From: an uncultured Bacilli bacterium
Lineage (GTDB): Bacteria; Bacillota_I; Bacilli_A; RF39; UBA660
Length of the DNA: 35,580 nt
NCBI GenBank assembly: GCA_947588765.1
Contig: CANPZG010000012.1
Coordinates: forward strand, 1-35,580
Direction: 5' to 3'
Part shown: positions 15,989 to 35,580 of the stretch, piece by piece
Layout of the letters: every line of letters begins with the position of its first letter
Numbering within the stretch: position 1 is the first letter of the stretch
Program-made: the position numbers and the translations under genes
The notes under the pieces: model-generated
What the model saw: the letters and a program-made list of their open reading frames with translations, nothing else
Told to the model about the DNA's origin: nothing
Database searches by the model: none

Positions 15989-16010
15989 TGAATTGTAGCA
16001 TTACTTTTTT
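15981..16010. terminator. Bidirectional terminator between thrS and the wall-anchored protein gene
   Basis: AAAAGTAATG (15981-15990) / CATTACTTTT (15999-16008), a perfect 10-bp stem with an 8-nt loop and T-runs on both strands, lies between converging genes. Confidence 0.8.
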
Positions 16011-17365
16011 TAAACTAATTTATTATTTTTCTTACTCCAATAGTATATTCCAAATCCACCAGTAATTAATACTATAAGAGGTATTAAAGGAAGAAAACTT
16101 CCGGTACTAGGATTTTCTTCAGTATTTAAAGGACAAGCTTTAGTATATTCATCTTTACTAACAACATTCCCATCTTTATCATAATAAGTATCATCAATTA
16201 TTTCACAAGAATGTTTTTTACATTGTTTGTTATATTCATTTTCAGAGACTTCATTTCCATCTTTGTCATAATATTTATCATCAATTATTGTACAACTTTT
16301 ACATTGTTTATTGTATTCTTCTTCGGTAACAACATTTCCATCTTTATCATAATATTTATTATCAACTATTTCACATTTATGTTTTTCTTCTACAACAATT
16401 GGTTTACAAGAAGCATTGAATTCCGCTTCAGTTTCAACTTTTTTCCCATCTTTATCATAGTAATGACCATTTACAATAGAGCATACATGTTTTAAACAGT
16501 CTTCTTCATATTCACTTTTTTTAACATTTTCTCCAGATTTATTAAAGTAGTATTCAATTACTTTATTTTCATTACACCAATATTTATTACTATTTAATTC
16601 TCCATCAGTATTAGCGGTTTCACATGAATTTGTAGTATCCGGAATAAATGTACAATAATGGTTTTTACATTGAAGTTCAAACTTTTCTTTTGTCGTCTTT
16701 TCGCCATTTTTATCATAATAATCTTGACCTACTACTTCACAATAATGTTTAGTTTCTTTTTCACCACATTCGGCATCAAAGGCTTCTTTATTTTTTAGCT
16801 GAGTACCATTTTTGCCCCAATAAGTTCCATCAGAAAGTTGAACACAAATATTTACTTCACATTGTTTTTGATATGTTAATTTATCAGTTGGTTTACCACT
16901 GGCATCATAATAACTATCTTCTGTTTTAAAACATTTTAAATCTCCTACTGTAAAAGAAGGAATATATTTAGCTAAACATTCTTCAGCATAATTAATTTTG
17001 TTAAATTTGATAGTAGCAATCTTATGATATCCTACTTTAAAAACACTATCTGTATGAGTAAAGTTATAAGTTGTATCATTAGCTTTTGAATAATTCCAAC
17101 CAGTTTCTACAGTAATGTCACCATCATTAATAGTAAGATTTGTTAATTCTAATTTTTCATTAAAATTTTTAAGTAATACATCTTGATCTGTAATTTCAAA
17201 ACCTAAATCACATATCATATAAGCAGTTTGACTATTAGAATCTTTTACCATATCTTGACATTTTAATCCTATGCCATCTCCGAAAGATATTCCTGCTTTT
17301 ACTCCTTTTATATTAACTAATAAACATAAAGTCAAAATCATCAGACTAATAAATCCTTTTTTCAT
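16010..17365 (-). CDS. Secreted Cys-bounded repeat protein with sortase-type NPSTG anchor
   Basis: This 451-residue surface protein has a signal peptide at about 1-24 (MKKGFISLMILTLCLLVNIKGVKA). Residues 25-140 form a probable beta-sandwich domain (for example VGYHKIATIKFN). From about 150 to 415 there are eight units of about 28-35 residues with a Cys at each end and a central YYDKDGxxV core (CEIVDNKYYDKDGNVV, CTIIDDKYYDKDGNEV, CEIIDDTYYDKDGNVV). Those nearest the C-terminus are most alike. The C-terminus has NPSTG (418-422), a hydrophobic stretch and a KKNNK tail, which is a sortase cell-wall sorting signal with a non-canonical motif. The ribosome site on this strand is AGGTGAG. The paired Cys may form disulfides in each unit. 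Binding partner unknown. Confidence 0.85.
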   Translation of the reverse strand: MKKGFISLMILTLCLLVNIKGVKAGISFGDGIGLKCQDMVKDSNSQTAYMICDLGFEITDQDVLLKNFNEKLELTNLTINDGDITVETGWNYSKANDTTYNFTHTDSVFKVGYHKIATIKFNKINYAEECLAKYIPSFTVGDLKCFKTEDSYYDASGKPTDKLTYQKQCEVNICVQLSDGTYWGKNGTQLKNKEAFDAECGEKETKHYCEVVGQDYYDKNGEKTTKEKFELQCKNHYCTFIPDTTNSCETANTDGELNSNKYWCNENKVIEYYFNKSGENVKKSEYEEDCLKHVCSIVNGHYYDKDGKKVETEAEFNASCKPIVVEEKHKCEIVDNKYYDKDGNVVTEEEYNKQCKSCTIIDDKYYDKDGNEVSENEYNKQCKKHSCEIIDDTYYDKDGNVVSKDEYTKACPLNTEENPSTGSFLPLIPLIVLITGGFGIYYWSKKNNKLV

Positions 17366-17714
17366 ATTCTCACCTATCCTAAAATAAGTGTACCAAATTT
17401 CTAACGAAAAGTCTATAGTGCAAAATTATCAAAAATAAATTTTTGCAAAATAAAAAGTGTTGGATTATTATAAATCTCGCAAATTACTTTGTTTATAATT
17501 ATTGGTGATTAATAGGCGAATCTTTGATATAATAAATGTAACAAAAAAAGTATTTATGGTTGAGATAAAAGAAATTAATAAAAAATATTTTAGCAAAAGT
17601 CCAGCAATGTTAGTTGAATTTAAAAATATAATCAAAAATTTAAATGAATATATATAGTAATTTTAAAATGTTTATTATAATATTTGCTTAAAAATTAAGA
17701 TAGGAGATTTGTTA
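17366..17714. other. Intergenic region between divergent genes
   Basis: This 349-nt AT-rich gap separates the surface protein gene (minus) from the accessory cluster (plus). A 33-codon frame (17556-17657, MVEIKEINKKYF...) has no ribosome site and no recognisable similarity, so I do not call it. TATAAT (17676-17681) lies just before the AGGAG of the next gene, but I see no good -35. The boundary between housekeeping and accessory DNA is probably in this stretch. Confidence 0.4.
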
Positions 17715-18158
17715 ATGAAAGATTATGAGTTATATGAATTAAATTTAAAAAAGAATAATAAGAGAAATAAAAAATTTTTAAAAATATTTGCAGATTGGTT
17801 GAATGATCAAAAAATAGGTAAAAAAACTATTAGGAAACATTTAAATAATATTGATTTATATGTAAATGATTATTTAAATTATTATGAAATAACTGAGATG
17901 GAAAAGGGAGTGGGTATGGTGTATTCATTTTTAAATGATTGGTTTATTAGAAAATGTTTGTGGTCATCAGTTACTTCAATTAAAGAAACCGCGGCAAGTA
18001 TTAAAAAATTTTATCAATGTATGAGTGAAAAAGGATATATAAAGAATGAAGATTATAAGTTTTTATGTCGAGAAATCAAAGATAATATGGATATATTTAT
18101 ACATTCTTTAATGGAATATGATCAGTATGATGGTGAAGAATGGGAAGAATTTATTTAG
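17715..18158 (+). CDS. Integrase-type SAM-like (core-binding) domain protein without catalytic domain
   Basis: This 147-residue protein resembles the N-terminal SAM-like DNA-binding domain of tyrosine recombinases: FADWLNDQKIGKKTIRKHLNNIDLYVNDYL, then FLNDWFIRKCLWSSVTSIKETAASIKKFYQCM. No catalytic R-H-R-Y domain follows. I have seen such stand-alone domains next to pRiA4b ORF-3-like genes, as here. The ATG at 17715 is preferred over the TTG two codons upstream, because AGGAG (17702-17706) is 8 nt from the ATG but only 2 nt from the TTG. The stop is 12 nt before the next gene, so it heads an operon. It may be a DNA-binding relic of recombinase domestication. Exact role unknown. Confidence 0.65.
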   Translation: MKDYELYELNLKKNNKRNKKFLKIFADWLNDQKIGKKTIRKHLNNIDLYVNDYLNYYEITEMEKGVGMVYSFLNDWFIRKCLWSSVTSIKETAASIKKFYQCMSEKGYIKNEDYKFLCREIKDNMDIFIHSLMEYDQYDGEEWEEFI

Positions 18159-18170
18159 GAGGAAACAATA

Positions 18171-18767
18171 ATGGATAAAATATTAAAATTTAAAGTAGGA
18201 ATAGAAGGTTTAGAAGATAAAATATGGCGTGTTATCGAAATAACTGATCGAATGACAGTTGCCGATTTAGCTTATACAATATTAGCATCCTTTAATTCAC
18301 TTGCATATCATTTATATAAGATAAATTATAATGATAATATTTATGATTGTCGCATTAATCCCAAAGAAACTAAATATGATGAGGATAAAATAAGTGCTGT
18401 TGCGATAAGATTAAGTAGTCTTAAGTTAAAAGAAAATGATACTATAGAGATGGAATATGACTATGGATCTCCAACAACATTTAAAATTACATATTTAAGT
18501 TATGAAGAATTAAAAAATTATAATGATGCTAAAAATTATCCTTGTGTTTTAGTTGGTGAAGGATTAGGTATGTTAGATGATATGTCTTGTTATGATTTAA
18601 AAGATATAGTACTAGAAACTGACAAGTTAGGATATTCTAATAGTTATTTTACATCGGGGTATGGTACAAATAAAAAATATGATTATCGAAAATATAATAT
18701 AAAAACAGATAATAAAAATTTAAAAGGATTAATTCTTTTAATCAAGAATGGCTATGAAGTAAAGTAG
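18171..18767 (+). CDS. Plasmid pRiA4b ORF-3-like protein
   Basis: This 198-residue protein matches the pRiA4b ORF-3 family pattern. It has an opening beta segment LKFKVGIEGLEDKIWRVIEI, a helix MTVADLAYTILASFN followed by HLYKI, and the conserved central MEYDYGSPTTFKITYL (family consensus around YDFGDxWxHxI). The family is widespread in plasmids and accessory regions and has no proven biochemical activity. AGGAGG lies 9 nt before the ATG, and the gene is 12 nt after the SAM-like gene and 15 nt before the UPF0158 gene. Here the usual W/H in the YDFGD-W-H stretch is replaced by TTFK, which may mean divergence from the typical ligand site. Confidence 0.75.
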   Translation: MDKILKFKVGIEGLEDKIWRVIEITDRMTVADLAYTILASFNSLAYHLYKINYNDNIYDCRINPKETKYDEDKISAVAIRLSSLKLKENDTIEMEYDYGSPTTFKITYLSYEELKNYNDAKNYPCVLVGEGLGMLDDMSCYDLKDIVLETDKLGYSNSYFTSGYGTNKKYDYRKYNIKTDNKNLKGLILLIKNGYEVK

Positions 18768-18782
18768 AATAAAGGATAAGTT

Positions 18783-19187
18783 ATGAAAGTAAAATTAGAT
18801 GATATAATAGAAGCTTTAGAATTTGTTAATATGGGAATGGATACTTATGCTTATTTAAATCCCAAAACAGGTGAAATATCATATATTGATGATTACATGG
18901 ATATAAATGCCGAAGAAAAAGAAGATATTTATGAAGAAAATATAGATTTACCCACAAAATATGATATTGATGAATACAGTATGATGGAAGAATTTATTGA
19001 AACAATTGATGATGAAAGATTATATAATCAGTTATATATTGCACTAAATGGTAGAGGTGCTTTTAGAAGATTTAAAGATACTTGTATTAATTTTGATATT
19101 ATTGATGATTGGTATAAATTTAGAGATGAAAAATACAAAGAACTCGCCATTGAATGGTGTAAAGATAATAATATAGAATATATTTAG
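18783..19187 (+). CDS. UPF0158 family protein
   Basis: This acidic protein of 134 residues fits UPF0158: an N-terminal VKLDDIIEALEFVNMGMDTYAYLNPKTGEI, a central LPTKYDIDEYSMMEEFIETI, and a C-terminal GRGAFRRFKDTC...WYKFRDEKYKELAIEWCKDNNI. The GAFRRFKD and WYxFRDE blocks are the family hallmarks. No activity has been demonstrated for the family. AAAGGATAAG precedes the ATG. It lies in the middle of the co-directional accessory cluster and is probably co-transcribed. Confidence 0.8.
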   Translation: MKVKLDDIIEALEFVNMGMDTYAYLNPKTGEISYIDDYMDINAEEKEDIYEENIDLPTKYDIDEYSMMEEFIETIDDERLYNQLYIALNGRGAFRRFKDTCINFDIIDDWYKFRDEKYKELAIEWCKDNNIEYI

Positions 19188-19207
19188 TATAAATTAAGGT
19201 ATTAAAA

Positions 19208-19936
19208 ATGAATAGAGAAAATTTTAAAATAGAATTAAATAAAGAATTAGAAAATTTATCTATTGAAGAAATTAAAAATTTAATAAATGAATTTATTGAT
19301 AGAATACCTTCTAATTATTATGAATATATAATATGTAAAATTAAATATTTAAAAGGGGAAAAGTATAATTTAGATGACGATACTTTAAAGGAATATGAAA
19401 AGATACTTGCTGATTTTGAAAAAATAGAAAATGGAGAAATATGCTTTAAAAGTTATTCTTATGAAACAGGAACTTATAGTTACTATAGTGAGGATGTTGA
19501 TTATGTATTTTATCCTTCAAGTGAAATTAAAGAAGTTTTAGTTGCTAGTTATAACTTAATTAAAAAATTAATTTTATATAAAGAATATAGTAAAGTTATT
19601 ACTTTATTTGAATCTATTATTAATACTAGGTATACTTGTGAAGAAGGTGGTAATCCTGAGTATGATAATTCAGACGTAGTTTATGATACTTATGACGTTG
19701 ATTTTAATGATATAAAAGATAATTTAGGAATTGATTTAAATAAAACTTGTATATATGATATATATTCCTTAATAATGTTAAATAAATCTGACAAATATGA
19801 AAAAATTTGGGAATATAAAAAAATATGTAATGATATAAATATAAAAGAAGTTTTAAATGTTGGTCTTGAGAAAATAGATAATTTTGATAAAATTTATAAT
19901 GAATGGGTAAAATATGTAGAAAAAAAGAAACATTAA
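19208..19936 (+). CDS. Hypothetical helical protein in accessory cluster
   Basis: This 242-residue protein is acidic, Lys/Glu/Tyr-rich and mainly helical in appearance, with no recognised motif. The middle (about 70-100) has a Tyr/Ser-rich stretch (FKSYSYETGTYSYYSEDVDY), and helices (LVASYNLIKKLILYKEYSKVITLFESI) resemble a TPR-like solenoid. There is no signal peptide or membrane segment. The ribosome site is weak (TAAGGT). It lies 20 nt after the UPF0158 gene and 17 nt before the phosphoesterase gene, so it is probably part of the same transcript. I cannot assign a function. Confidence 0.6.
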   Translation: MNRENFKIELNKELENLSIEEIKNLINEFIDRIPSNYYEYIICKIKYLKGEKYNLDDDTLKEYEKILADFEKIENGEICFKSYSYETGTYSYYSEDVDYVFYPSSEIKEVLVASYNLIKKLILYKEYSKVITLFESIINTRYTCEEGGNPEYDNSDVVYDTYDVDFNDIKDNLGIDLNKTCIYDIYSLIMLNKSDKYEKIWEYKKICNDINIKEVLNVGLEKIDNFDKIYNEWVKYVEKKKH

Positions 19937-19953
19937 TTTAATTTAGGAGGTAT

Positions 19954-20880
19954 ATGATGATATATATAACGGGGGATACTCATCGAAATTTTACAAGACT
20001 TTTTAGTTTGGATAGTAATGAAGATGATATGTTAATAGTACTAGGAGATGCTGGAATAAATTATTTTCTAAATGAAGAAGATAAAAAATATAAAGAATAT
20101 CTAAAGAGATTTAAATTAAAATTATTTTGTGTAAGAGGTAATCATGAAGAACGACCAGAAAATACAAAAACATATAAAGAAAAAGATATGTTTGATGGTA
20201 AGGTATTTGTTGAAGAAGAATTTCCTAACTTAATATTTGCTAAAGATGGTGAATCTTATAATATAGATGGAAAAAGTGTTTTAGTTATTGGGGGAGCTTA
20301 TTCAATAGATAAAGAATATCGCTTGTTATATGGTAGTAAGTGGTTTAAGGATGAACAATTAAATAAAGAGGAACAAAAAAAGATTTTGAAGAAAGTTAAA
20401 GGCAAACATTTTGATATAGTATTAACGCATACCTGTCCTTTAAAGTATGAACCTAAAGAAGTATTTATGAAAGGGTTAGATCAAGCAAAAGTTGATAAAT
20501 CAATGGAAATTTTCTTAGATAAAATTGAAGAAAATATAGATTATAATAAATGGTATTGTGGTCATTATCATACGGAGAAAAAGATTGATAAATTAGAGTT
20601 TATGTTTGGAAGAATAAAAATATTTTTAAAAGATGAATTTGTTCCTAAGTATGATAATAATGGTTATGAAATAGTTAGAGACTATTGTAGTCAGGAATTA
20701 GTTCATAAAGGTAGTAAGGTATGTTGCCCTAAATGTAATGGTAATAATATAGTTATTGAAAAAGGTGATGGTGAAAATATTTATGGATTAGATGAAATTG
20801 CTATTATTTGTAATGATTGCAAAAAAGTATATGGATTTAGTGATGTTAGATACAAACCTAATTGTCCTAAAGAACTATAA
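19954..20880 (+). CDS. Calcineurin-like metallophosphoesterase with C-terminal zinc ribbon
   Basis: This 308-residue enzyme has a complete metallophosphoesterase motif set: GDTH (D8, H10), GDAG (D32), GNHE (N63, H64), LTHTCP (H159) and GHYH near 200. It should bind two metals and hydrolyse phosphomonoesters, phosphodiesters or nucleotides. The substrate is not evident. After the catalytic domain a zinc ribbon is seen at about 255-300: CCPKCNGNN ... IICNDCKKVYGF (two CxxC pairs), which may bind nucleic acid. AGGAGG is 3 nt from the ATG at 19954 and 6 nt from the ATG at 19957, so the second may be the true start. It is the last gene of the accessory cluster. Confidence 0.85.
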   Translation: MMIYITGDTHRNFTRLFSLDSNEDDMLIVLGDAGINYFLNEEDKKYKEYLKRFKLKLFCVRGNHEERPENTKTYKEKDMFDGKVFVEEEFPNLIFAKDGESYNIDGKSVLVIGGAYSIDKEYRLLYGSKWFKDEQLNKEEQKKILKKVKGKHFDIVLTHTCPLKYEPKEVFMKGLDQAKVDKSMEIFLDKIEENIDYNKWYCGHYHTEKKIDKLEFMFGRIKIFLKDEFVPKYDNNGYEIVRDYCSQELVHKGSKVCCPKCNGNNIVIEKGDGENIYGLDEIAIICNDCKKVYGFSDVRYKPNCPKEL

Positions 20881-20987
20881 CTATAGAGGAAAATAACTAA
20901 AGAATAAGATAATTAGAATAAAATTAATACTTAAAAAATTTTGTTCTGAACTAGGCAACAAATTAATGATTTTAAATAGTTGGAAGA

Positions 20988-21016
20988 TTGAAATATCATA
21001 TAGGCAATGATATAAT
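20988..21016 (+). promoter_or_regulatory. Promoter of coiled-coil gene copy 1
   Basis: TTGAAA (20988-20993), a 17-nt spacer, TATAAT (21011-21016). It is conserved unchanged in copy 2. Confidence 0.65.
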
Positions 21017-21045
21017 AATTACAGATTTGAAGGAGAAGTAAGAAA

Positions 21046-21996
21046 ATGAAAAAAGATGAAATAACTTTAAAAAACACTAAACAAGAAATACTTGATGCCC
21101 TAAACGCAGCTTTAGAAAGAGAAAAAGATATTGCTAAAATTAAATCAGACCCAGCTCAAGAAGAAAAAGAAAGAAAGATAAAAGCAGCAGTAGAAGAAAC
21201 GCAAAAAAATGTTGATGCTAATATTTTTTCTAATGAATTAATTAATAAATTTAAAGATTTAGAACTAGCTATTCAAGCCGAAAAAGAAAAATTAAAAAAT
21301 CTTTATGATATTGATAAAGAGTTACTTAATTTAACCTTAGTTATGAATGCGGGAAAAGAAGCTCTTGCAGAATTAGAAAAAAAGAAAGACATTGCTACAA
21401 AAGATTTAGAAGAAAAAATTAAAAATTTAGAAGATGAGTATAAAATTAAAACTGAAACTTTAAATAAAGAATATGAGTTAAAAACAAAAACTTTAAAAAT
21501 AGAAAGAGATAGAGAGGAAGAAGAATATAATTATAAAATAAACCGTGATAGAACTATTTCCAATAACGAATGGGAAGATGAAAAGAAAAATAGAGAAAGT
21601 GTTTTAAAAGCAATGGAAGAAGAAACTAAGAAGACTTTAGATGAAGTAAAAAACAAAGAAAAATTATTAAATGAATTACAAACTAAAGTTGATGATATAC
21701 CTAATCTATTATTAAAAGAAAGTGATAAAACAAGAAAAGAAGTTACAATAGAATTAGAAAAGGAACATAAATATTCGAGCGAGTTATTAAAAAAGGATTA
21801 TCAAAATACTATTGATAGACAAAATGATAAAATTGAAACTTTACAAGAAGAACTTACCAAATCAAATGCTTTAAATTCTTCTTTACAAGATAAAATAGAT
21901 AAAGCATATTTACAAATAAAAGAATTAGCATCAAAAACTGTTGAAGCTAATGGTGGAGTGAAAATATTAGGAAATAACCAAGTAGAAACTAAATAG
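21046..21996 (+). CDS. Long coiled-coil protein, copy 1
   Basis: This 316-residue protein is almost entirely Lys/Glu-rich heptad-like helix. The longest stretch is about 95-210 (LEEKIKNLEDEYKIK..., KTLKIERDREEEEY), with a second at about 240-296. The N-terminus (MKKDEITLKNTKQEILDAL) and the C-terminus (VEANGGVKILGNNQVETK) are less helical and may be specific ends. There is no signal peptide or membrane segment, so it is probably a cytoplasmic filament-like or scaffold protein. No family is recognised. Copy 2 differs at three residues (T265A, T271A, N311S). The ribosome site AAGGAG is 10 nt from the ATG. An amidase relic follows both copies, so the ancestral unit was probably coiled-coil gene plus amidase gene. 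Confidence 0.8.
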   Translation: MKKDEITLKNTKQEILDALNAALEREKDIAKIKSDPAQEEKERKIKAAVEETQKNVDANIFSNELINKFKDLELAIQAEKEKLKNLYDIDKELLNLTLVMNAGKEALAELEKKKDIATKDLEEKIKNLEDEYKIKTETLNKEYELKTKTLKIERDREEEEYNYKINRDRTISNNEWEDEKKNRESVLKAMEEETKKTLDEVKNKEKLLNELQTKVDDIPNLLLKESDKTRKEVTIELEKEHKYSSELLKKDYQNTIDRQNDKIETLQEELTKSNALNSSLQDKIDKAYLQIKELASKTVEANGGVKILGNNQVETK

Positions 21997-22011
21997 TTTT
22001 TACTTGGTTTT
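21976..22011 (+). terminator. Terminator overlapping the end of coiled-coil gene copy 1
   Basis: AACCAAGTAGAAAC (21976-21989) pairs with GTTTTTACTTGGTT (21996-22009), 14 bp with one G-U, loop TAAATA, then T's. The 5' arm encodes the last residues (NQVETK). Confidence 0.75.
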
Positions 22012-22116
22012 AAATAAAAAATATATTAGAAAAATATCAAAGATTTAATGAATTTGAAATTTACTAAATATGTTTAATTTACATAAATTTTCTGAATTTA
22101 TATTAGGTGATAAACT

Positions 22117-22404
22117 ATGGATAAGAGAGCAACTAAAAAGGTGGTTATAGATAGTGGTCGTGGGGACGACACCTCTGGAACTATTGCTAATGGAATAACT
22201 GAAAAAGACTATACTTTAAAGATAAGTAAATACATTTATGATAGGTTAAAAGATTTAGGTATAGATGCATCTTTATCAAGAGAAGATGATACAACTTTAG
22301 GACCAAATGATAGACCTAAAAAAATTCAAAGTTTTTATGGTAATGGATCAGATGTAATAGTAGTTTCTAATCACATAAATGCTGGAGGTGCTGCATACGC
22401 GTGA
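22117..22404 (+). pseudogene. Truncated N-acetylmuramoyl-L-alanine amidase (Amidase_3)
   Basis: These 95 codons match only the N-terminal half of an Amidase_3 domain. They show KKVVIDSGRGDD at the position of the usual VVIDAGHGG, then NGITEKDYTLKISKYIYDRLKDLG, SREDDTTLGPNDR and VIVVSNHINAGGAAYA, after which a TGA follows. The metal-binding His of the first motif is replaced by Arg (GRG instead of GHG). The second half with the remaining metal ligand and catalytic Glu is absent. Intact enzymes cleave the MurNAc-L-Ala bond in peptidoglycan, but this product should be inactive. A good ribosome site (AGGTGATAA) is kept. Four shorter relics of the same start occur downstream. Confidence 0.8.
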
Positions 22405-22587: not shown

Positions 22588-23109
22588 ATGGCATTAAATG
22601 ATTTTAAAGATATGGTTGAAAATGCTAGAAAAATAAAAGGTTATTCACAAAGAAAATTGGCTAAAATGATAGGAATGAGTCAAAGTACATATAATGATAC
22701 AATCAATGGAAAAATAAAAAAACCAGATATAGATATATTAAAAAGAATAGCTGAAGAATTAGATTTATCTTTAGATTTAATGCTTAAAGAATCTGGATAT
22801 GGTGAATCATTCTCTATATATGGAATTGATAAATATAAAAATAAATTCACTAAAGATTTAAAAAATTTAATTGATGAATATAAAAAGTCAGAATTAGATT
22901 TATTAGAATTCGATCATCAAAAAAGAAATGTTACAAAAAAAGTTAGGCAAAAAATGTTTACAACAATAGAAAAGATGAAAATAATGAAAGAGAATAAAGA
23001 TAGTCAATATACAATTGATAAAGCAATTGATGATGTTCAATCTTCATTTGATCAATTAGAAATAGTAGAAGAGAAATATGACTATAAAAAACTACCTAAA
23101 GACTTATAA
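22588..23109 (+). CDS. XRE-family regulator of the restriction-modification operon
   Basis: In this 173-residue protein, residues about 6-62 form a Cro/C1-type helix-turn-helix: ENARKIKGYSQRKLAKMIGMSQSTYNDTINGKIKKPDIDILKRIAEELDLSLDLML. Residues 75-173 form a Lys/Glu-rich helical, probably oligomerising region. It lies first in an operon with a C5 methylase, an McrB-like protein and a LlaJI-type nuclease, with a 14-nt gap to the methylase. This is the place where controller (C) proteins occur in restriction-modification systems. It is longer than classical C proteins (about 80-100 residues), so regulation may differ. GAGGTG precedes the ATG. Confidence 0.85.
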   Translation: MALNDFKDMVENARKIKGYSQRKLAKMIGMSQSTYNDTINGKIKKPDIDILKRIAEELDLSLDLMLKESGYGESFSIYGIDKYKNKFTKDLKNLIDEYKKSELDLLEFDHQKRNVTKKVRQKMFTTIEKMKIMKENKDSQYTIDKAIDDVQSSFDQLEIVEEKYDYKKLPKDL

Positions 23110-23123
23110 TCGGGAGGTACAGC

Positions 23124-24191
23124 ATGAAAAAAAAGAAAGTATTAAAAGTATTTGAAGGATTTGCTGGATATGGTGGAGGACATTTTGCTCTGGATAGATT
23201 AAAAGAAAAATATCCAAATTTTGAATTTGAAATTATTGGGTATTCTGAAATAGATAAATATGCTTGTGAATTATATGACTTAAATCACAAAGATAAAAAA
23301 GGAAATTGTATCAAAAATTTTGGCGATATAACAAAAATTAACCCAGATGATGTTCCTAATTTTGATATATTTATGGGCGGATTTCCTTGCCAACCATTTT
23401 CGACAGCCGGTATGCAAAAGGGAGTGGATGATCCATATGGAAGAGGAACATTATTTCAACATATTATGCGCATTTGTGATGCTAAAAAACCTAAATATAT
23501 ACTATTAGAAAATGTTAAAGGATTCTTTTCAAAAAAATTTGAATCGACAAGAAAACAAATGGAAAATATGTTAATAGAAATGGGATATTCAAGTGGAAAA
23601 GAAGATTCCCCATTAAGAGTAGCATTGTTGAATAGCAGGAATTATGGTGTTCCTCAAAATAGGGAAAGAGTTTGGATGTTTGCAAGATATGGTGGATTAC
23701 CAGAATCTTTCTCTATGACTCCCAAAGAAATTCATAATGGAATGTTAATGGCAGATTTTCTTGATCCTGAAGGTTTTGTCCCTAAGGGAATGTATTTATC
23801 AGATAAGCAAATAAAACATTTGAAAGAAAAACATAGTATTGATAGTTTCAGAGTAAAAAGAGCATTATGTTTTGATGTTTATAATAAGAAAATAAAGACA
23901 GATGGTTATTCAATAACAATAACAATGCCAGAGCATAATAGTTTAAGAGTCATAGAACCACATGGTAATAAAGAAGTTGTCAGAAAAATGTCAGTAACTG
24001 AACAATTTAGACTAATGGGACTTGAAGGGCTAGGTGATGTTGGTAGAAAAGTAGATATTGTATTTGGAAATCAATCATATACTCAGCTATCAAAAAGAGC
24101 TGGTAACGGATGGGATGTTAATTTAGTATATATATTATTAGATTACATTTTTACTCAATTGAAAGATATTGATGAGAACTGGTTAGATTAG
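23124..24191 (+). CDS. DNA (cytosine-5-)-methyltransferase
   Basis: This 355-residue enzyme transfers methyl from S-adenosylmethionine to C5 of cytosine in a specific DNA sequence. Motifs are in the normal order: motif I VFEGFAGYGGGHFAL (SAM binding), motif IV GGFPCQPFS with catalytic C89, motif VI LLENVKG (E129), motif VIII QNRERVW (Q178-R182), then the target-recognition region. Motifs IX/X are in TEQFRLMGL and GNGWDVNLV. GGGAGG lies upstream of the ATG. It sits between the XRE regulator and the McrB/LlaJI pair, so its likely job is protecting host sites from that nuclease. Recognition sequence not predictable here. Confidence 0.93.
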   Translation: MKKKKVLKVFEGFAGYGGGHFALDRLKEKYPNFEFEIIGYSEIDKYACELYDLNHKDKKGNCIKNFGDITKINPDDVPNFDIFMGGFPCQPFSTAGMQKGVDDPYGRGTLFQHIMRICDAKKPKYILLENVKGFFSKKFESTRKQMENMLIEMGYSSGKEDSPLRVALLNSRNYGVPQNRERVWMFARYGGLPESFSMTPKEIHNGMLMADFLDPEGFVPKGMYLSDKQIKHLKEKHSIDSFRVKRALCFDVYNKKIKTDGYSITITMPEHNSLRVIEPHGNKEVVRKMSVTEQFRLMGLEGLGDVGRKVDIVFGNQSYTQLSKRAGNGWDVNLVYILLDYIFTQLKDIDENWLD

Positions 24192-24205
24192 TAAGGAGGT
24201 ATATT

Positions 24206-26455
24206 ATGAAACTAGATATTGGGTCAATTGCTTTTAATATGAATATTGCTGATGGAGGCGGAACTCCATCTTGGGGTACTGCATTAGGGCAAAATACGGA
24301 TTATAAATTTTCAGTTCCAGGAGCGGAAGAATTAATTACTTCAATGGCATATTCGATTATAGATAAAAACTTAGTTTTTTGTCCTTTAGGAAAAGGAGGA
24401 CATTCGACTAAATATAACTACGAATTTGCTAGTTTATATGAGAAAGTATTTGTTAATGGAAAATTGATTCCAGGAGCTAAATTTGTTTTGCTTGTAGTTA
24501 AGCAAGTAGAAGGAGAAAATCATGTAGGCCGAAGAACATTAAAATATTCTCCTAAAATTACTTATATGGATCAAAAAATAAATGAAGACTGCATAAAGAA
24601 AATAATTCTGAATCTTGGATTAAAAGATGAAAGTGCATGGTTTGTATATTCTATTTATACAAAGAATCAAGATGAATTACATTTTGATGCAATAATTGCA
24701 GATTCTGATAAATCTTTAACATTTAATAGTACAGAAGAAAGAAAAAATTATATTTTAGAATTATTAAAAAATAGAGGTATATACATGAGCGAAACAATTG
24801 TTGAAAAATTAACAAATGATGATAGTGAATTAGAAAAATTCAGAAAATATTATCTTTCAAATTTACATAATTTAAAAAATGATATTGAATTATATGATGG
24901 GATTAGATTAAGAAAAGAATTTCAAGAAGAATATCCTTTAGAAAGATTAAAAAATTTACAATTAAGTGAATATGCTTTGGGCTATTCCGATGTTTCTTCT
25001 GATTCATTATCATATAAGCTTGAATTTGGCAAATATAAACATTGTGGAATGGGGATAGGCGGTGGATCAGCTGCAAAGCATGGTATATATAAGGGAAAAG
25101 ATGGAAACTTCCATGGTAAAAAAGAGGCTATAATTGAAAATCCAGAAGAATTCTGGAATACATTTAGAGGACAATTATATGATTTTCTATGTGAAGTTGG
25201 TAGTTCAGATAGTTTTCCTAATATTGAAGAAAAGTATCCATTGATTAAAAATATACCACTTGTTGCTACTAAATTATGTTATTTATATTTTCCACAAAAA
25301 TTTATAAATATTGGAACTAAGGGAAAATTATTAGAAATTGTTGATAAATTTGATATAGATTGCGATGAAGCAATTTCATCTAAAATGTCATATTCGATTT
25401 CTAAATATTTAAAAGAAAATATTTCAGAAATAAATAATGATGATCCTCAATGGATAGGGCATGCATTATGGAAATATATTGATACAGAAGACAAAGAAGA
25501 TGAAAAAAGTAGCTCGATTATAGATGATGTTGATAGAATAAGAAACGCATATAATAAAATATATTATGGAGTGCCTGGAAGTGGTAAAAGTTATATTGTA
25601 GATGACAAATTTAATGAAAAAGATTATAAAATTTATAGAACAACCTTTCATCCGGAGTATACTAATAGTGATTTCGTAGGACAAATTATTCCTATGGTAA
25701 AAGATAATAAAGTTGAATACGTATTTCATCCTGGTTCATTTACATTAGCTTTAAAGTATGCTTTAGAAAATAAAGATAAAAAAGTATGTTTAATTATTGA
25801 AGAAATTAATAGAGGAAATTCTTCTGCAATATTTGGTGATATATTTCAATTATTAGATAGGGAATCTAATGGAAAAAGTAAATATAAAATTTACAATGGA
25901 CCTATTATAGACTATTTAGAAGAAAATGGTATTAATATAGAACAAATATATATTCCATCCAATATGTGGATAGTTGCAACTATGAACACAAGTGATCAAA
26001 ATGTATTTACATTAGATACTGCATTTAAACGTAGATGGAAAATGGAATATATAAGGAATGTATTTGCAAATAATGATGAATCAAAAAAATTAAGAAATAA
26101 AATTATTCCTTTAGGAGATAAATATCCTAATGTCACATGGGAAACTTTTGTAAATAAAATAAATAAGCATATTATTTCAGATACATCTGGAATAAATGGT
26201 GAAGACAAACAATTAGGTATGTATTTTGTTACTATTGAAGAAATAGATAATCAAAAAGAATTTGCTGAAAAAATATTGTCTTATTTATGGGAAGATGTTG
26301 CAAAATTAAACACTTCATATTGGTTTGGATCTATTTCTTCATATGATGAATTAATTGATTCATTTAATAAATATTCTTTAGATATATTTAATTCTTTATT
26401 TGATGATGAAATACAAGTTATTGAAGATTATACAATTAAAAATATAGGAGAATAG
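24206..26455 (+). CDS. McrB-like AAA+ restriction subunit (LlaJI R1-type)
   Basis: This 749-residue protein is the motor and recognition subunit of a modification-linked restriction system. The McrB-type AAA+ module covers about 445-640, with Walker A GVPGSGKS (455-462), Walker B LIIEEINRG near 530-537 and the McrB-typical MNTSD sensor, then AFKRRWKMEYI. McrB-family modules hydrolyse GTP or ATP and drive DNA translocation with McrC. Residues about 195-430 (ERLKNLQLSEYALG, FGKYKHCGMGIGGGSAAKHGIY) form a segment common in McrB-like ATPases. Residues 1-190 (IADGGGTPSWGTALG, PGAEELITSMAYSI) are a separate domain I cannot name, probably DNA recognition. AAGGAGG precedes the ATG, and the gene ends 1 nt before the nuclease start. 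Confidence 0.88.
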   Translation: MKLDIGSIAFNMNIADGGGTPSWGTALGQNTDYKFSVPGAEELITSMAYSIIDKNLVFCPLGKGGHSTKYNYEFASLYEKVFVNGKLIPGAKFVLLVVKQVEGENHVGRRTLKYSPKITYMDQKINEDCIKKIILNLGLKDESAWFVYSIYTKNQDELHFDAIIADSDKSLTFNSTEERKNYILELLKNRGIYMSETIVEKLTNDDSELEKFRKYYLSNLHNLKNDIELYDGIRLRKEFQEEYPLERLKNLQLSEYALGYSDVSSDSLSYKLEFGKYKHCGMGIGGGSAAKHGIYKGKDGNFHGKKEAIIENPEEFWNTFRGQLYDFLCEVGSSDSFPNIEEKYPLIKNIPLVATKLCYLYFPQKFINIGTKGKLLEIVDKFDIDCDEAISSKMSYSISKYLKENISEINNDDPQWIGHALWKYIDTEDKEDEKSSSIIDDVDRIRNAYNKIYYGVPGSGKSYIVDDKFNEKDYKIYRTTFHPEYTNSDFVGQIIPMVKDNKVEYVFHPGSFTLALKYALENKDKKVCLIIEEINRGNSSAIFGDIFQLLDRESNGKSKYKIYNGPIIDYLEENGINIEQIYIPSNMWIVATMNTSDQNVFTLDTAFKRRWKMEYIRNVFANNDESKKLRNKIIPLGDKYPNVTWETFVNKINKHIISDTSGINGEDKQLGMYFVTIEEIDNQKEFAEKILSYLWEDVAKLNTSYWFGSISSYDELIDSFNKYSLDIFNSLFDDEIQVIEDYTIKNIGE

Positions 26456-26456
26456 T

Positions 26457-27722
26457 ATGAAATTTTCCGATAAAGTGATTTTTAAAAATGGTTATGAAGG
26501 AGATAGTTTTGTTGGTTTAAAATATAAGAAAGATAAAATTAATATCTTTTTACCTATCGGATATAATAAAGATTATTTTAATACAGACGAGGAATTAAGT
26601 TCAGAACAAAAAGTAGATTTGTTATTATTATTAGAAACTATTACATTAGTTAAAAATTCTAATAATGAAAAAACGGACTTTGGGGATGATATAGGAAATA
26701 ATGATGAGATTCCCTACAATTCATTAATATGGATTATTAACGATTATTTTAATAATGGATTATATCAAGAAATTGAAAAAAAGTATTCCCAAAAAAGCCA
26801 AGGTAAAATTAATTGGAAGAAAACACTTAACTCGGATCATTACTTTGAAAATAATAGTGTTACGTATATTAATCCTTATTATGAATCAAATGTACAAAGA
26901 AGTACGTTAATAACAGAATTAAATAATTATTGCGTACATAAAAGTTTTAAATATATAGGTTTCTTATTTGGAAAGGTATATCTTCCTGAATGCAATTTAA
27001 GAGAGGAATTAATCAAAGATAATATTAAATATTATATTGATGTTATCAATAAAGAATTAGCCAAGTCTTTTAATGATAGAAAAAAAATATTGCTGACTAA
27101 TATGAAAAGAATTCTTGAAATGACTTTTGAAGATAGTTTCGAGAATCAACCAACATATGGGACAAGAAGATATGAATATGCTTGGGAAAAAATGGTAAAT
27201 GGAACTCTTGGATCTAAAATTGATATTAGCAAATTTTTCCCTAATGCTTTTTGGAATATACAAGGTAAGATCGAAGAAGATAAATCAAAATTAAGACCAG
27301 ATTCAATTTTGATAGATAATAATTCAAGAAAATTATATATTCTTGATGCAAAATACTATAAATATGGAATTACTGGCAATATTTCTGATTTACCACATAC
27401 TGATTCAATTCAGAAGCAAATAACATATGGCGATCACATATCAAATAATCCTGAAACATATGGATTTGAAAAAAATAATATATATAATGCATTTATTATT
27501 CCATTTAATAAAAGTAGAGAACCATTTAAAAGTGAAGATAATATAAAATATATGGGATTTGCAAATAGCACTTGGAGAGATAAAAAAGAGACATATAACT
27601 ATGAAAGGATATCTTTATTATTAGTTGATACAAAATACATGATAGATTGTTTTTATCAAAAAGAGCGTGCTAATCTTAAACAATTGATTAAGTTAATAGA
27701 AAAATCTTCTTTTAATACTTGA
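26457..27722 (+). CDS. LlaJI-family restriction endonuclease (McrC-like subunit)
   Basis: This 421-residue protein is the nuclease partner of the McrB-like protein. The N-terminal half (FKNGYEGDSFVGLKYKKDKINIFLPIGY, SEQKVDLLLLLETI) follows the LlaJI/McrC-type pattern that docks on the AAA+ ring. The C-terminal half has a PD-(D/E)xK core: RPDSILI with D282, then YILDAKYYKY with D297 and K299, and QKQITYGDHI after it. The start is 1 nt after the McrB stop, with AGGAG in the end of that gene, so the two are translationally coupled. Together with the methylase it forms a complete-looking LlaJI-like type II/McrBC hybrid system. LlaJI itself has two methylases, but only one is seen here. Confidence 0.88.
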   Translation: MKFSDKVIFKNGYEGDSFVGLKYKKDKINIFLPIGYNKDYFNTDEELSSEQKVDLLLLLETITLVKNSNNEKTDFGDDIGNNDEIPYNSLIWIINDYFNNGLYQEIEKKYSQKSQGKINWKKTLNSDHYFENNSVTYINPYYESNVQRSTLITELNNYCVHKSFKYIGFLFGKVYLPECNLREELIKDNIKYYIDVINKELAKSFNDRKKILLTNMKRILEMTFEDSFENQPTYGTRRYEYAWEKMVNGTLGSKIDISKFFPNAFWNIQGKIEEDKSKLRPDSILIDNNSRKLYILDAKYYKYGITGNISDLPHTDSIQKQITYGDHISNNPETYGFEKNNIYNAFIIPFNKSREPFKSEDNIKYMGFANSTWRDKKETYNYERISLLLVDTKYMIDCFYQKERANLKQLIKLIEKSSFNT

Positions 27723-28128: not shown

Positions 28129-28344
28129 ATTTGCTGCTTTTTAATGATTTGTTAAAATAACTAGGATATTAATTTTTGGTTATATTAATAAAAATACAGA
28201 ACAAAGTTTCATCCTTTTCATATCTTATATTAGGTGATAAACTATGGATGAAAGAGCAACAAAAAAGGTTTTAATTGATGCCGGGCATGGAGGTATCGGT
28301 TAAATCCAAAAATAGAGGCAATGGCTATTTTGGTAAGTAAATAC
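28057..28344 (+). repeat. Direct repeat of about 290 bp, copy a
   Basis: This stretch runs from inside the winged-helix gene through its stop, an AT-rich linker (TTTGTTAAAATAACTAGGAT...) and an amidase relic. It recurs at 35278-35576. The copies are near-identical apart from scattered substitutions, a missing A in the coding part, and an extra GCTGCTTTTTT-type unit in the second copy. Confidence 0.85.
28244..28344 (+). pseudogene. Amidase start relic, copy a, fused to an unrelated 3' piece
   Basis: A 19-codon frame MDERATKKVLIDAGHGGIG ends in TAA at 28301-28303. It is the first beta strand and metal-binding GHGG motif of an Amidase_3 enzyme, after a conserved ribosome site (AGGTGATAA). Directly after the stop, in another frame, comes a conserved segment reading NPKIEAMAILVSKY. 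The same junction is found at 33.65 and 35.53 kb, and in degraded form at 32.41 kb. Confidence 0.75.
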
Positions 28345-31000: not shown

Positions 31001-31212
31001 TTAACTAAATACTTTAATACAAAATAAAAAGTAGAATGAAGGTATAATTAATTACAACTTAGAGAAGGAATCATAAAGAGCAACCTGATGATAAATTTGA
31101 CTATAATAAGGAACTCTTATAGTAAGAAAATAATTTATAAAGATAGTAATATTATTTATGGCATAGTAATAAGAACATTTTAAGATACGAAAACTTAAAT
31201 ATAGTTGGAAGA

Positions 31213-31241
31213 TTGAAATATCTTATAGGCAATGATATAAT
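31213..31241 (+). promoter_or_regulatory. Promoter of coiled-coil gene copy 2
   Basis: TTGAAA (31213-31218), a 17-nt spacer, TATAAT (31236-31241). Same as copy 1. Confidence 0.65.
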
Positions 31242-31270
31242 AATTACAGATTCGAAGGAGAAGTAAGAAA

Positions 31271-32221
31271 ATGAAAAAAGATGAAATAACTTTAAAAAAC
31301 ACTAAACAAGAAATACTTGATGCCCTAAACGCAGCTTTAGAAAGAGAAAAAGATATTGCTAAAATTAAATCAGACCCAGCTCAAGAAGAAAAAGAAAGAA
31401 AGATAAAAGCAGCAGTAGAAGAAACGCAAAAAAATGTTGATGCTAATATTTTTTCTAATGAATTAATTAATAAATTTAAAGATTTAGAACTAGCTATTCA
31501 AGCCGAAAAAGAAAAATTAAAAAATCTTTATGATATTGATAAAGAGTTACTTAATTTAACCTTAGTTATGAATGCGGGAAAAGAAGCTCTTGCAGAATTA
31601 GAAAAAAAGAAAGACATTGCTACAAAAGATTTAGAAGAAAAAATTAAAAATTTAGAAGATGAGTATAAAATTAAAACTGAAACTTTAAATAAAGAATATG
31701 AGTTAAAAACAAAAACTTTAAAAATAGAAAGAGATAGAGAGGAAGAAGAATATAATTATAAAATAAACCGTGATAGAACTATTTCCAATAACGAATGGGA
31801 AGATGAAAAGAAAAATAGAGAAAGTGTTTTAAAAGCAATGGAAGAAGAAACTAAGAAGACTTTAGATGAAGTAAAAAACAAAGAAAAATTATTAAATGAA
31901 TTACAAACTAAAGTTGATGATATACCTAATCTATTATTAAAAGAAAGTGATAAAACAAGAAAAGAAGTTACAATAGAATTAGAAAAGGAACATAAATATT
32001 CGAGCGAGTTATTAAAAAAGGATTATCAAAATACTATTGATAGACAAAATGATAAAATTGAAGCTTTACAAGAAGAACTTGCTAAATCAAATGCTTTAAA
32101 TTCTTCTTTACAAGATAAAATAGATAAGGCATATTTACAAATAAAAGAATTAGCATCAAAGACTGTTGAAGCTAACGGTGGAGTGAAAATATTAGGAAAT
32201 AGCCAAGTAGAAACTAAATAG
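31271..32221 (+). CDS. Long coiled-coil protein, copy 2
   Basis: This 316-residue protein is identical to the 21.0 kb copy except T265A, T271A and N311S. It has the same Lys/Glu-rich coiled-coil architecture, no signal peptide and no known family. Both copies keep full reading frames, promoter, ribosome site and terminator, so both are probably expressed. The nucleotide differences in the gene are confined to its last 140 nt or so. This fits a recent gene-conversion or duplication tract covering the 5' part. It is followed by an amidase relic and a broken glycosyltransferase gene. Confidence 0.8.
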   Translation: MKKDEITLKNTKQEILDALNAALEREKDIAKIKSDPAQEEKERKIKAAVEETQKNVDANIFSNELINKFKDLELAIQAEKEKLKNLYDIDKELLNLTLVMNAGKEALAELEKKKDIATKDLEEKIKNLEDEYKIKTETLNKEYELKTKTLKIERDREEEEYNYKINRDRTISNNEWEDEKKNRESVLKAMEEETKKTLDEVKNKEKLLNELQTKVDDIPNLLLKESDKTRKEVTIELEKEHKYSSELLKKDYQNTIDRQNDKIEALQEELAKSNALNSSLQDKIDKAYLQIKELASKTVEANGGVKILGNSQVETK

Positions 32222-32236
32222 TTTTTACTTGTTTTT
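32204..32236 (+). terminator. Terminator overlapping the end of coiled-coil gene copy 2
   Basis: CAAGTAGAAAC (32204-32214) pairs with GTTTTTACTTG (32221-32231), loop TAAATA, then TTTTT. The outer 3 bp of the copy-1 stem are lost, but the T-run is better. Confidence 0.7.
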
Positions 32237-32344
32237 AAATATATAAAAAATATTAGAAGAATATTAAAAATTTAATCAGTTTGAGATTTACCGAAGATTT
32301 TTAATTTATCCAAATTTCCTAACACACTCACATATTTACTGAGT

Positions 32345-32498
32345 TTATATTAGAAATATAAATTCAAGAACAACAAAGAAAGTCATAATTGCTGCTGCTA
32401 TGGGGAATCGGTTAAATTCAAAAATAGAGGAAATGGCTATTTTGATAAGCAAATATAAGAGTTTAAGGTACTTAATATACAAGTATCTTTTTAAATGA
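32345..32498 (+). pseudogene. Degraded amidase relic, copy b, with longer 3' piece
   Basis: The start resembles the other relics (TTTATATTAG, then ACAACAAAGAAAGTCATAATT for TKKVII), but the ATG and ribosome site are decayed. The junction GAATCGGTTAAAT is present. The 3' part stays open longest here: NSKIEEMAILISKYKSLR, then YLIYKYLFK and TGA at 32496-32498. It looks like the C-terminus of a separate protein, possibly a glycosyltransferase. A hairpin (AAGGTACTT/AAGTATCTT) lies over its end. Confidence 0.6.
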
Positions 32499-32528: not shown

Positions 32529-33527
32529 ATGAAAGTAAGTATTATTGTTCCAGTATATAATTCAGGAAAATATTTAAAGGATTGTTTAGATTCTTTAGTT
32601 AATCAAACTTTATAAGAAATAGAAATAATTGCAATTGATGATGCTTCTAGTGATAAAAGTTTAGAAATATTAAAAAATTATGAAAAGAAATATCCAAATA
32701 AAATTAAAGTTTATACTAATCCTAAAAATTTAGGACAAGGAGCTACTAGAAATAAAGGAATTAAACTTGCAACAGGAGAATATATTGGCTTTTTAGATAG
32801 TGATGATTATGTAAATTTTAATATGTATGCCAAAATGTATGAGATGGCTAAAAAGAATGATGATCCAGAGATTATAACGACCGGTTTAGTTTTTGTTAAT
32901 AATAATGACTATTTAGCAAATAGTTTTAAAGGAATATCCCAAACCAGTGGAAGTATTATAAGTGTTTTTGATAATCCTAGTGCAATATTAGATGAATCTC
33001 CATCTGTATGTAATAAATTATTTAGAAGTGATATGATTAAAAATTCTCCATTTATTGAGGAAAAAATGTGGGAAGATATTGCCTTTACTTATGCTAAAAT
33101 GTTTAAAGCTAATAAAATATTAAGATTTAATGATGCTGATTATTTTTATCGTCGTAGAGCAAATGAAGGTGTTTCTTCCCAAAATAATCAATTTAATATT
33201 CATTTATTTGATATTTTTGAGGTTAATGATTTTTTAGAAAAAGAATTAAGGGAAGCAAATAAATATGAAACATATGAATATTATATAAAATTTATTCAAA
33301 TAGCATATTCATTATATAGAGTAACTGAAATTTTTTCTTGGAATATAGATGAAAAAACAAAACAAGAATTAATTAATAAAATGTGTAAATTAATATTAGC
33401 AAAATATGGTAATTGGCGGGTTTATCCAAAAGAACTTTTATCAAGTAAAATCGGAATAATAGAACTTGAAAAAATAAATGAATATTTTATAAAAAATAAT
33501 CAATCTAAAGATATGAAAATATCTTAA
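32529..33527 (+). pseudogene. GT2-family glycosyltransferase interrupted by one stop codon
   Basis: The frame starts MKVSIIVPVYNSGKYLKDCL, the classic GT-A start. A TAA at 32613-32615 (codon 29) interrupts the usual LVNQTLxxIEIIAIDD stretch. Downstream the same frame continues intact for 304 codons, with DDASSDKS, NLGQGATRNKGI, the DxD-type LDSDDYV, then MWEDIAFTYAK and a helical C-terminus. These enzymes transfer sugars to wall or capsule polymers. One base change (CAA or AAA to TAA) would explain the stop. Restart at a later Met (32823) would lose the nucleotide-sugar site, so the gene is probably inactive. AAGGAG precedes the ATG. A sequencing error or rare readthrough is possible. Confidence 0.8.
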
Positions 33528-33570
33528 AAATTAATTTTAAAGCTTTCACCAAATAAGTAAATAAACATAC

Positions 33571-33690
33571 TTTATATTAGGTGATAAACTATGGATGAAA
33601 GAGCAACAAAAAAGGTTTTAATTGATGCCGGGCATGGAGGTATCGGTTAAATCCAAAAATATAGGAAATGGCTATTTTGGTAAAGAAATA
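33571..33690 (+). pseudogene. Amidase start relic, copy c
   Basis: The ATG at 33591 opens the same 19-codon frame as copy a, ending at TAA 33648-33650. DNA identity to copy a is complete from TTATATTAGG through CCAAAAATA. The 3' piece (NPKI, stop, EMAILVKKY) is shorter and diverges after GAAATATT. Confidence 0.75.
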
Positions 33691-33761
33691 TTAGTTTATT
33701 GTCAAAAAAATTTTAATTATAATTTATTTAACAATTCATATGTAAAAAAATAATATAAATA

Positions 33762-35349: not shown

Positions 35350-35475
35350 TTTGCTGCTTTTTTGCTGCTTTTTTAATTATTTGTTAAAATAACTAGGATA
35401 TTAATTTTTGGTTATATTAATAAAAATACAGAACAAAGTTTCATCTTTTTCATATCTTATATTAGGTGATAAACT

Positions 35476-35580
35476 ATGGATGAAAGAGCAACAAAAAAGG
35501 TGGTTGTAGATAGTGGACATGGAGGTATCGGTTAAATCCAAAAATAGAAGAAATGACTATTTTGGTAAGTAAATACAAGA
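35476..35580 (+). pseudogene. Amidase start relic, copy d
   Basis: A 19-codon frame MDERATKKVVVDSGHGGIG is followed by TAA (35533-35535), then the same 3' piece NPKIEEMTILVSKYK running to the window edge. At a few bases in GGTGGTTGTAGATAGTGG it is closer to the 22.1 kb amidase than to copies a and c, which suggests exchange between copies. Confidence 0.75.

What the first reader, a model, noticed from the sequence alone, without database searches (positions are those of the whole stretch)
17715..20880. Five-gene accessory cluster ending in a zinc-ribbon phosphoesterase
Seen: tight co-directional order of SAM-like integrase domain (no catalytic part), pRiA4b ORF-3-like, UPF0158, unknown 242-residue protein and metallophosphoesterase with C-terminal CxxC/CxxC. 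None of the first four has a proven activity, but a DNA-binding domain plus a nuclease-like or phosphatase enzyme in one operon next to a defence island could be an unrecognised conflict or nucleic-acid maintenance system.
Basis: inference. Interest (0 to 1): 0.5.

Follow-up and report, generated by a model that had tools for sequence, protein, structure and literature searches.

The report
Modular UPF0158 operon near mobile island
Five intact, tightly packed accessory genes in a gut bacterium turn out to be a decayed version of a larger modular operon built around a small protein of unknown function (UPF0158) that keeps swapping its partner genes; it may be an undescribed defence-like module, but no function has been shown.

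Summary
In detail: five intact same-strand genes at 17715-20880, gaps 12-20 nt, all under purifying selection. The exact five-gene set is unique to the window among 44 compared loci; parts recur. Rabbit-gut Bacilli MAGs share an order [PRiA4] > SWIM > [SAM] > [PRiA4] > UPF0158 > gene 4. The window has lost the SWIM gene except its last ~41 codons, just upstream. UPF0158 is the constant part; its partners change (SWIM-helical protein, PRiA4, two unnamed large families, DUF6904), at least 17 switches on a weakly supported tree of 60 sequences. The SWIM-UPF0158 link reaches other families: near in Sedimentibacter, fused in one 670-aa protein in another Bacilli family. The PRiA4-UPF0158 link is narrow: no genome-level co-occurrence in an even family sample. 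The metallophosphoesterase is loosely attached. UPF0158 loci often lie beside AbiE, HipA and RhuM genes and serine-recombinase elements. Best reading: a modular, exchangeable-partner cargo operon, probably conflict-related; function inferred only. The neighbouring restriction genes sit in a separate element that splits an amidase gene. UPF0158 gives a confident model without a PDB match by Foldseek.

The parts
17532..17657 (+). 3' remnant (last ~41 codons) of a SWIM zinc-finger/helical-repeat protein gene; the rest is deleted
   Evidence: tblastn of five 552-556-aa SWIM proteins of relatives matches window 17532-17654 (three of them from 17565) at 57-61%; DNA match in L074, L076, L079, L081, L082
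17715..18158 (+). lone SAM-like (integrase N-terminal, core-binding) domain protein, 147 aa, no catalytic domain
   Evidence: PF13102: 8 of 8 family members, window copy 20.7 bits vs cut-off 22.3; start codon from alignment A4
18171..18767 (+). PRiA4_ORF3 (pRiA4b ORF-3-like) protein, 198 aa
   Evidence: PF07929 66 bits vs cut-off 26.6; solved relative 2i1s, E 0.0011
18783..19187 (+). UPF0158 protein, 134 aa; the constant member of the module
   Evidence: PF03682 34.9 bits vs 21.1; 64 related loci; AF2 model pLDDT 91.5
19208..19936 (+). gene 4, 242-aa helical protein; short form of a family that also has a ~545-aa form
   Evidence: homologues of 240-244 aa in L078, L079, L083 and 545-548 aa in L087, L088, L090; AF2 pLDDT 89.9, helical-repeat matches up to Z 9.3
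19954..20880 (+). metallophosphoesterase with C-terminal zinc-ribbon-like CxxC/CxxC
   Evidence: PF00149 48 bits vs 21.5; phrog_1649 3.1e-30 and phrog_5602 3.1e-5 over the C-terminus
22117..22404 (+). 5' half of a split N-acetylmuramoyl-L-alanine amidase gene = left junction (core GAGGTG at 22385-22390) of the neighbouring element; boundary, not part of the module
   Evidence: PF01520; 3' half at G000:C13:1573; junctions

Best explanation
The cluster is a decayed copy of a modular accessory operon whose constant member is UPF0158 and whose other members (SWIM/helical-repeat protein, PRiA4_ORF3, SAM-like protein, gene 4 and others) are exchanged between copies. Shown: intact genes under purifying selection, partial gene-order conservation in related MAGs, loss of the SWIM gene in the window, many partner switches, a SWIM-UPF0158 gene fusion in another Bacilli family, and frequent proximity to toxin-antitoxin-type genes and serine-recombinase elements. 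Inferred: UPF0158 works in a complex with its partner; the zinc-finger or SAM-like members contact nucleic acid and UPF0158 acts as adaptor or regulator; the module is conflict cargo (anti-phage or addiction-like) that profits from swapping partners. The phosphoesterase is probably a separate, phage-type cargo gene that came to lie at the end of the operon.
For: Order and partner table: of 65 distinct UPF0158 sequences, 18 have SWIM, 12 PRiA4, 5 gene 4, 5 F460 and 5 DUF6904 as immediate same-strand neighbour. Collinear DNA: window vs L082 1.6 kb at 79% (SAM-PRiA4-UPF0158), vs L083 1.8 kb at 84% (PRiA4-UPF0158-gene 4), vs L079 1.2 kb (UPF0158-gene 4) plus 0.9 kb (phosphoesterase) at 83%. Fusion: one 670-aa ORF in L182 matches the SWIM family over residues 2-536 and UPF0158 over 539-668, next to a PLD-helicase-DUF3427 gene. 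Near SWIM in Sedimentibacter (L129), PRiA4 in a Tissierellia MAG (L136), F508 in a Mollicutes MAG (L125), SEC-C/TPR in Lachnospiraceae (L128). Partner labels change at least 17 times on the UPF0158 tree; L083 and L085, on one contig, have sister UPF0158 copies with different partners. AbiE, HipA or RhuM within the fetched stretch in 31 of 51 UPF0158 loci vs 1 of 37 random stretches.
Against: No member has a shown activity; PADLOC gives nothing convincing. In the even family sample UPF0158 (15 of 145) and PRiA4 (12 of 145) are both present only in the window's own genome, no more than chance (about 1.2 expected). Of 20 loci outside the family examined, one (L184) had no UPF0158 ORF called and 14 had none of the partners nearby. 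The TA enrichment uses models built from the UPF0158 loci themselves and related loci, so it is inflated; in the 15 family genomes with UPF0158, AbiEii lies within about 1 kb in one (G186) and about 14 kb away in one (G105). The window copy lacks the SWIM gene, so the best-supported pair is broken here. The UPF0158 tree is weakly supported (8 of 57 branches starred).
Confidence: 0.45

Rival explanations
1. Hitch-hiking: the five genes are unrelated cargo that piled up beside an integration hot spot; recurrent neighbourhoods reflect shared hot spots and recent common descent, not joint function.
For: Partners change constantly; the phosphoesterase stands in unrelated neighbourhoods in G193, G110, G202 and others; the exact five-gene set is unique; no genome-level co-occurrence of UPF0158 and PRiA4 in the family sample; most loci outside the family lack partners.
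Against: Tight operon spacing, fixed sub-orders with DNA collinearity at 79-84%, a SWIM-UPF0158 fusion, and links in other classes are not expected from mere hitch-hiking.
Confidence: 0.3
2. Element-maintenance module: UPF0158 and its zinc-finger, SAM-like and PRiA4 partners help mobile elements (recombination control, replication, repair), not defence.
For: In one element family the order is amidase junction > UPF0158 > SWIM > RhuM > peptidase > large serine recombinase; the SAM-like domain is the DNA-contacting part of tyrosine recombinases (recalled); PRiA4_ORF3-like genes ride on ISAzba1-group transposons (passage of PMC3942029); a SWIM-helical protein of Porphyromonas, PG1037, binds 8-oxoG lesions and lies between uvrA and pcrA (passages of PMC3747172).
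Against: Many copies are not beside a recombinase: LSR in 12 of 51 UPF0158 loci (fetched stretches are short, so a lower bound); the window cluster lies outside the left junction of its neighbouring element; partner swapping is unusual for a core maintenance function (inference).
Confidence: 0.2
3. Ordinary housekeeping or stress module (for example DNA-damage response) that by chance sits in an island.
For: PG1037 precedent; some distant UPF0158 copies stand alone among housekeeping-type genes.
Against: Patchy occurrence: 15 of 145 family genomes and 12 of 392 phylum genomes have UPF0158.
Confidence: 0.05

Closest known systems
SWIM zinc-finger/helical-repeat proteins such as PG1037 of Porphyromonas gingivalis (PMC3747172, passages read)
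   Same: N-terminal SWIM motif followed by helical repeats in a 500-600-aa protein, as in the SWIM partner of UPF0158
   Different: No UPF0158 in the passages read; PG1037 sits with uvrA and pcrA and is reported as probably essential, whereas this SWIM gene is accessory and deleted in the window; sequences were not compared
pRiA4b ORF-3-like proteins on ISAzba1-group transposons (PMC3942029, one passage read)
   Same: PRiA4_ORF3 family as passenger of mobile elements
   Different: No transposase was named by Pfam among the window genes scanned; here the gene is in an operon with UPF0158
Type IV toxin-antitoxin AbiE and HipA-like kinases
   Same: Frequent neighbours of UPF0158 modules (AbiEii beside UPF0158-PRiA4 in L089, L093, L118; HipA-type and F460 genes beside UPF0158 in L077, L080, L085, L086)
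   Different: None of the five window proteins belongs to these families; gene 4 gives only a weak partial AbiEi hit, E 0.0056
Large-serine-recombinase elements that insert into a host gene (attachment sites surveyed in PMC10083194, search listing only)
   Same: The neighbouring element splits an amidase gene at a short core, and relatives carry an LSR at the other end
   Different: The five-gene cluster is outside the left junction, and no LSR over cut-off was found in the window's genome

Membership tests
UPF0158 (PF03682) | Profile match over curated cut-off | tested here: met
   34.9 bits vs 21.1
PRiA4_ORF3 (PF07929) | Profile match over curated cut-off | tested here: met
   66 bits vs 26.6
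Calcineurin-like metallophosphoesterase (PF00149) | Profile match and metal-ligand motifs | tested here: met
   48 bits vs 21.5; GDTH, GNHE, GHYH present
Calcineurin-like metallophosphoesterase (PF00149) | Enzyme activity and substrate | not testable with these tools
   needs an assay
Integrase SAM-like domain (PF13102) | Profile match | tested here: met
   8 of 8 family members at E <= 0.01 (best 2.5e-7); window copy itself below the curated cut-off
Tyrosine recombinase | Catalytic domain | tested here: not met
   protein ends after the SAM-like region; no catalytic family found
Known anti-phage system (PADLOC-DB) | Members match the system's proteins | tested here: not met
   best hits of the five proteins: phosphoesterase vs PDC-S10 1.1e-6 over residues 1-87, gene 4 vs AbiEi 0.0056, SAM-like vs DrmMII 0.066; of the partner proteins of relatives scanned, SWIM gave a marginal DpdE hit, 0.0047, and the SEC-C/TPR protein of L128 C-terminal hits to E2 and PDC-S12 models, best 1.7e-6
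UPF0158-SWIM pair | SWIM protein beside or fused to UPF0158 | tested here: not met
   in the window the SWIM gene is reduced to its last ~41 codons
Cargo of the LSR element in the amidase gene | Lies between the two element junctions | tested here: not met
   left junction at 22385-22390, right junction on contig C13; the cluster is upstream of the left junction

The most novel reading that the evidence does not exclude
UPF0158 is the invariant core of an undescribed, modular prokaryotic conflict system: a small adaptor of a fold without a Foldseek match in the PDB, coupled or fused to interchangeable large effector or sensor proteins (SWIM-helical, PRiA4_ORF3, F508, F460, DUF6904) that are swapped between mobile islands.
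Probability: 0.3. Interest if true: 0.75.

Novelty: new variant of a known kind. Interest (0 to 1): 0.45.

Why it matters
UPF0158 and PRiA4_ORF3 are old 'unknown function' families. The full-text library held one paper with 'UPF0158', where the passage is a table entry of transposon hits. A recurrent association with a gene fusion, exchangeable partners and toxin-antitoxin neighbours gives these families a concrete, testable hypothesis, and the fuller operons in rabbit-gut MAGs (L076, L079, L082) are small enough to clone.

Tried and rejected
Viral origin: four scans of viral contigs with gene 4, phosphoesterase, SAM-like and UPF0158 found no relative; UPF0158 had no match in 50,697 phage records; the phosphoesterase has phage relatives, at most 49% identical over its first 218 residues. 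The contig scans find close relatives only, so distant ones are not excluded.

Common ancestry of the large partners: HMM-HMM comparison found none among SWIM, gene 4, F508, F460, PRiA4, DUF6904, HipA-type, SAM and UPF0158; only short and long gene 4 match each other.

Gene 4 as a fragment unique to the window: rejected, 240-244-aa forms exist in three other MAGs.

Fold: UPF0158 model (pLDDT 91.5) best Foldseek E 0.62, best VIA Z 3.5; gene 4 best Foldseek E 0.38, VIA Z 9.3 to a designed binder and 8.1 to APPBP2. This does not prove a new fold.

Solved relatives by sequence: none for the phosphoesterase (E <= 0.01) or UPF0158 (E <= 1); a profile of the SAM-like family gave nothing below E 0.07.

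RNA: no Rfam hit and no tRNA in the window. Promoter-like sites in 17300-21200 little above shuffles (45 vs 35.9, sd 4.8), no terminator-like site.

Plasmid search with PRiA4 found only distant pRiA4b ORF-3 proteins, 24-29% identity.
Full report
What is there. Searches show five intact same-strand ORFs at 17715-20880 with 12-20 nt between them. Pfam names four: PF13102 (weak, below cut-off), PF07929, PF03682 and PF00149. The SAM-like assignment is firmer for the family: 8 of 8 members match PF13102, best 2.5e-7. pN/pS of 0.19-0.57 in 25 comparisons shows all five are maintained as genes. The window is the whole contig C12 of a 1.27-Mb genome in 58 contigs; its relatives include 'Lapin' (by the name, rabbit) Bacilli MAGs.

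How the genes occur elsewhere. I fetched stretches of relatives and 64 named UPF0158 loci, called ORFs and clustered them. Among 65 distinct UPF0158 sequences the immediate same-strand neighbours are SWIM 18, PRiA4 12, amidase 10, gene 4 5, F460 5, DUF6904 5 and others (clusters named by Pfam; F460 and F508 have no family and are my labels). One search lists the 44 loci with two or more of the seven families; no other locus has the window's five genes in a row. Pair orders on non-duplicate loci: SAM before UPF0158 5:0, SWIM before SAM 4:0, UPF0158 before gene 4 8:0, PRiA4 before gene 4 8:0, but PRiA4/UPF0158 10:7 and SWIM/UPF0158 9:15. L074 and L081 come from one MAG and are not independent.

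The window copy is decayed. DNA upstream of the SAM-like gene matches the end of the SWIM gene in L074, L076, L079, L081 and L082; by protein, window 17532-17654 matches the last 30-41 residues of the 552-556-aa SWIM proteins at 57-61%. So the window lost the SWIM gene and, presumably, the operon's own promoter. L079 reads PRiA4 > SWIM > UPF0158 > gene 4 > (F508) > phosphoesterase; L082 reads SWIM > SAM > PRiA4 > UPF0158; L083 reads PRiA4 > UPF0158 > gene 4.

Partner exchange. On a tree of 60 UPF0158 proteins the partner label changes at least 17 times ('none' counted as a state); presence of SWIM changes 9 times, gene 4 8, PRiA4 6. Support is low (8 of 57 branches starred), and loci cut by contig ends may hide partners. 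L083 and L085 lie about 16 kb apart on one contig (positions), have sister UPF0158 proteins, yet one has PRiA4 + gene 4 and the other F460 + a HipA-type gene.

Beyond the family. In 392 phylum genomes UPF0158 occurs in 12 and PRiA4 in 51; 9 have both, but only the window's genome has them on one contig. In 145 family genomes UPF0158 occurs in 15 and PRiA4 in 12, both only in the window's genome. So PRiA4-UPF0158 adjacency is mostly a feature of the window's genus and its near relatives. Of 20 loci outside the family looked at (L184 had no UPF0158 ORF called), five have a link: SWIM fused to UPF0158 (L182), SWIM two genes upstream (L129), PRiA4 upstream (L136), an F508-like gene downstream (L125) and a SEC-C/TPR gene overlapping (L128). 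The fusion covers the SWIM family at residues 2-536 and UPF0158 at 539-668 and lies beside a PLD-helicase-DUF3427 gene. Pfam itself gave only a weak TPR hit for it; the domains rest on profiles built here.

Neighbourhood. AbiE, HipA or RhuM occur in 31 of 51 UPF0158 loci and 1 of 37 random stretches of family genomes; LSR 12 vs 2; amidase 22 vs 3. The profiles were built from families first seen at UPF0158 loci, and loci are related, so these contrasts are inflated. AbiEii itself is common: 58 of 145 family genomes.

The neighbouring element. In the window's genus (30 genomes) the amidase gene is intact in 9, split in 14 and not found in either form in 7 (my count). Intact genes run on from ...HINAGG to GDGAEV...; 5' halves diverge right after the GG(A/T)GG that encodes this GG, and 3' halves resume at GGTGGCGAT or the like. 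In the window's genome the halves are window 22117-22404 and contig C13 from 1573, sharing GAGGTG. Relatives G003, G027 and G016 carry methylase-type cargo and an LSR between or behind the 5' half. Thus the LlaJI-type restriction genes are probably cargo of such an element, while the five-gene cluster lies outside its left junction. No LSR over cut-off was found in the window's genome, perhaps an assembly gap. A second element family (UPF0158 > SWIM > RhuM > peptidase > LSR) sits in the LysM part of the same gene, for example L149.

The island's left side in this genome is unusual: most relatives whose contig shows it have another block (cwlD-like amidase to cluster c17) before the amidase, and in G014 the ThrRS-surface-protein pair is followed by a different gene block. 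Rearrangement or a misjoined MAG contig cannot be told apart here.

Structure. UPF0158: pLDDT 91.5, no PDB match by Foldseek (best E 0.62) and VIA Z at most 3.5. Gene 4: pLDDT 89.9, helical, repeat-like at best.

Literature. 'UPF0158' occurs in one held paper (passage read). 'SWIM zinc finger' with 'defense island' in none. PG1037 (PMC3747172, passages) is the nearest studied SWIM-helical protein I found. PRiA4_ORF3-like genes on transposons: PMC3942029, one passage. PMC5512222, one passage, mentions SWIM-associated SNF2 ATPases in conflict systems. Other papers were seen only in search listings.

Verdict. The cluster is real and is one version of a modular UPF0158-centred operon. A conflict role is the most likely reading (0.45), with hitch-hiking (0.3) and element maintenance (0.2) open. 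The phosphoesterase is not its defining member.

Noticed in passing
window 22117-22404; G000:C13 from 1573; L149-L167: A cell-wall amidase gene is a recurrent integration site: split at the same codons in 14 of 30 genus genomes, intact in 9, with large serine recombinases and restriction genes between halves in some.
   Followed up: yes
window 28138-28344, 32404-32459, 33485-33691, 35370-35576: Further truncated amidase starts, each followed by the same short sequence and then different accessory genes, suggest tandem accretion of several elements; the contig ends in one copy.
   Followed up: partly
window 20976-22081 and 31201-32308: A 316-aa coiled-coil-like gene (phrog_29668) with flanks is duplicated at 98% over 1.1 kb, each copy just before an amidase start.
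   Followed up: partly
L149, L094, L100, L108, L110, L113: A second element family (UPF0158-SWIM-RhuM-peptidase-LSR) inserts in the LysM part of the same amidase gene.
   Followed up: partly
window 22588-27722: LlaJI-type restriction set with only one C5-methylase; L155 shows two.
   Followed up: no
window 16010-17365: Minus-strand surface-type protein with about five internal repeats and a hydrophobic C-terminus; no Pfam family.
   Followed up: no
L083 and L085: Two UPF0158 modules with different partners about 16 kb apart on one contig.
   Followed up: partly
L182 3266-8099: SWIM-UPF0158 fusion directly after a PLD-ResIII helicase-DUF3427 gene.
   Followed up: partly
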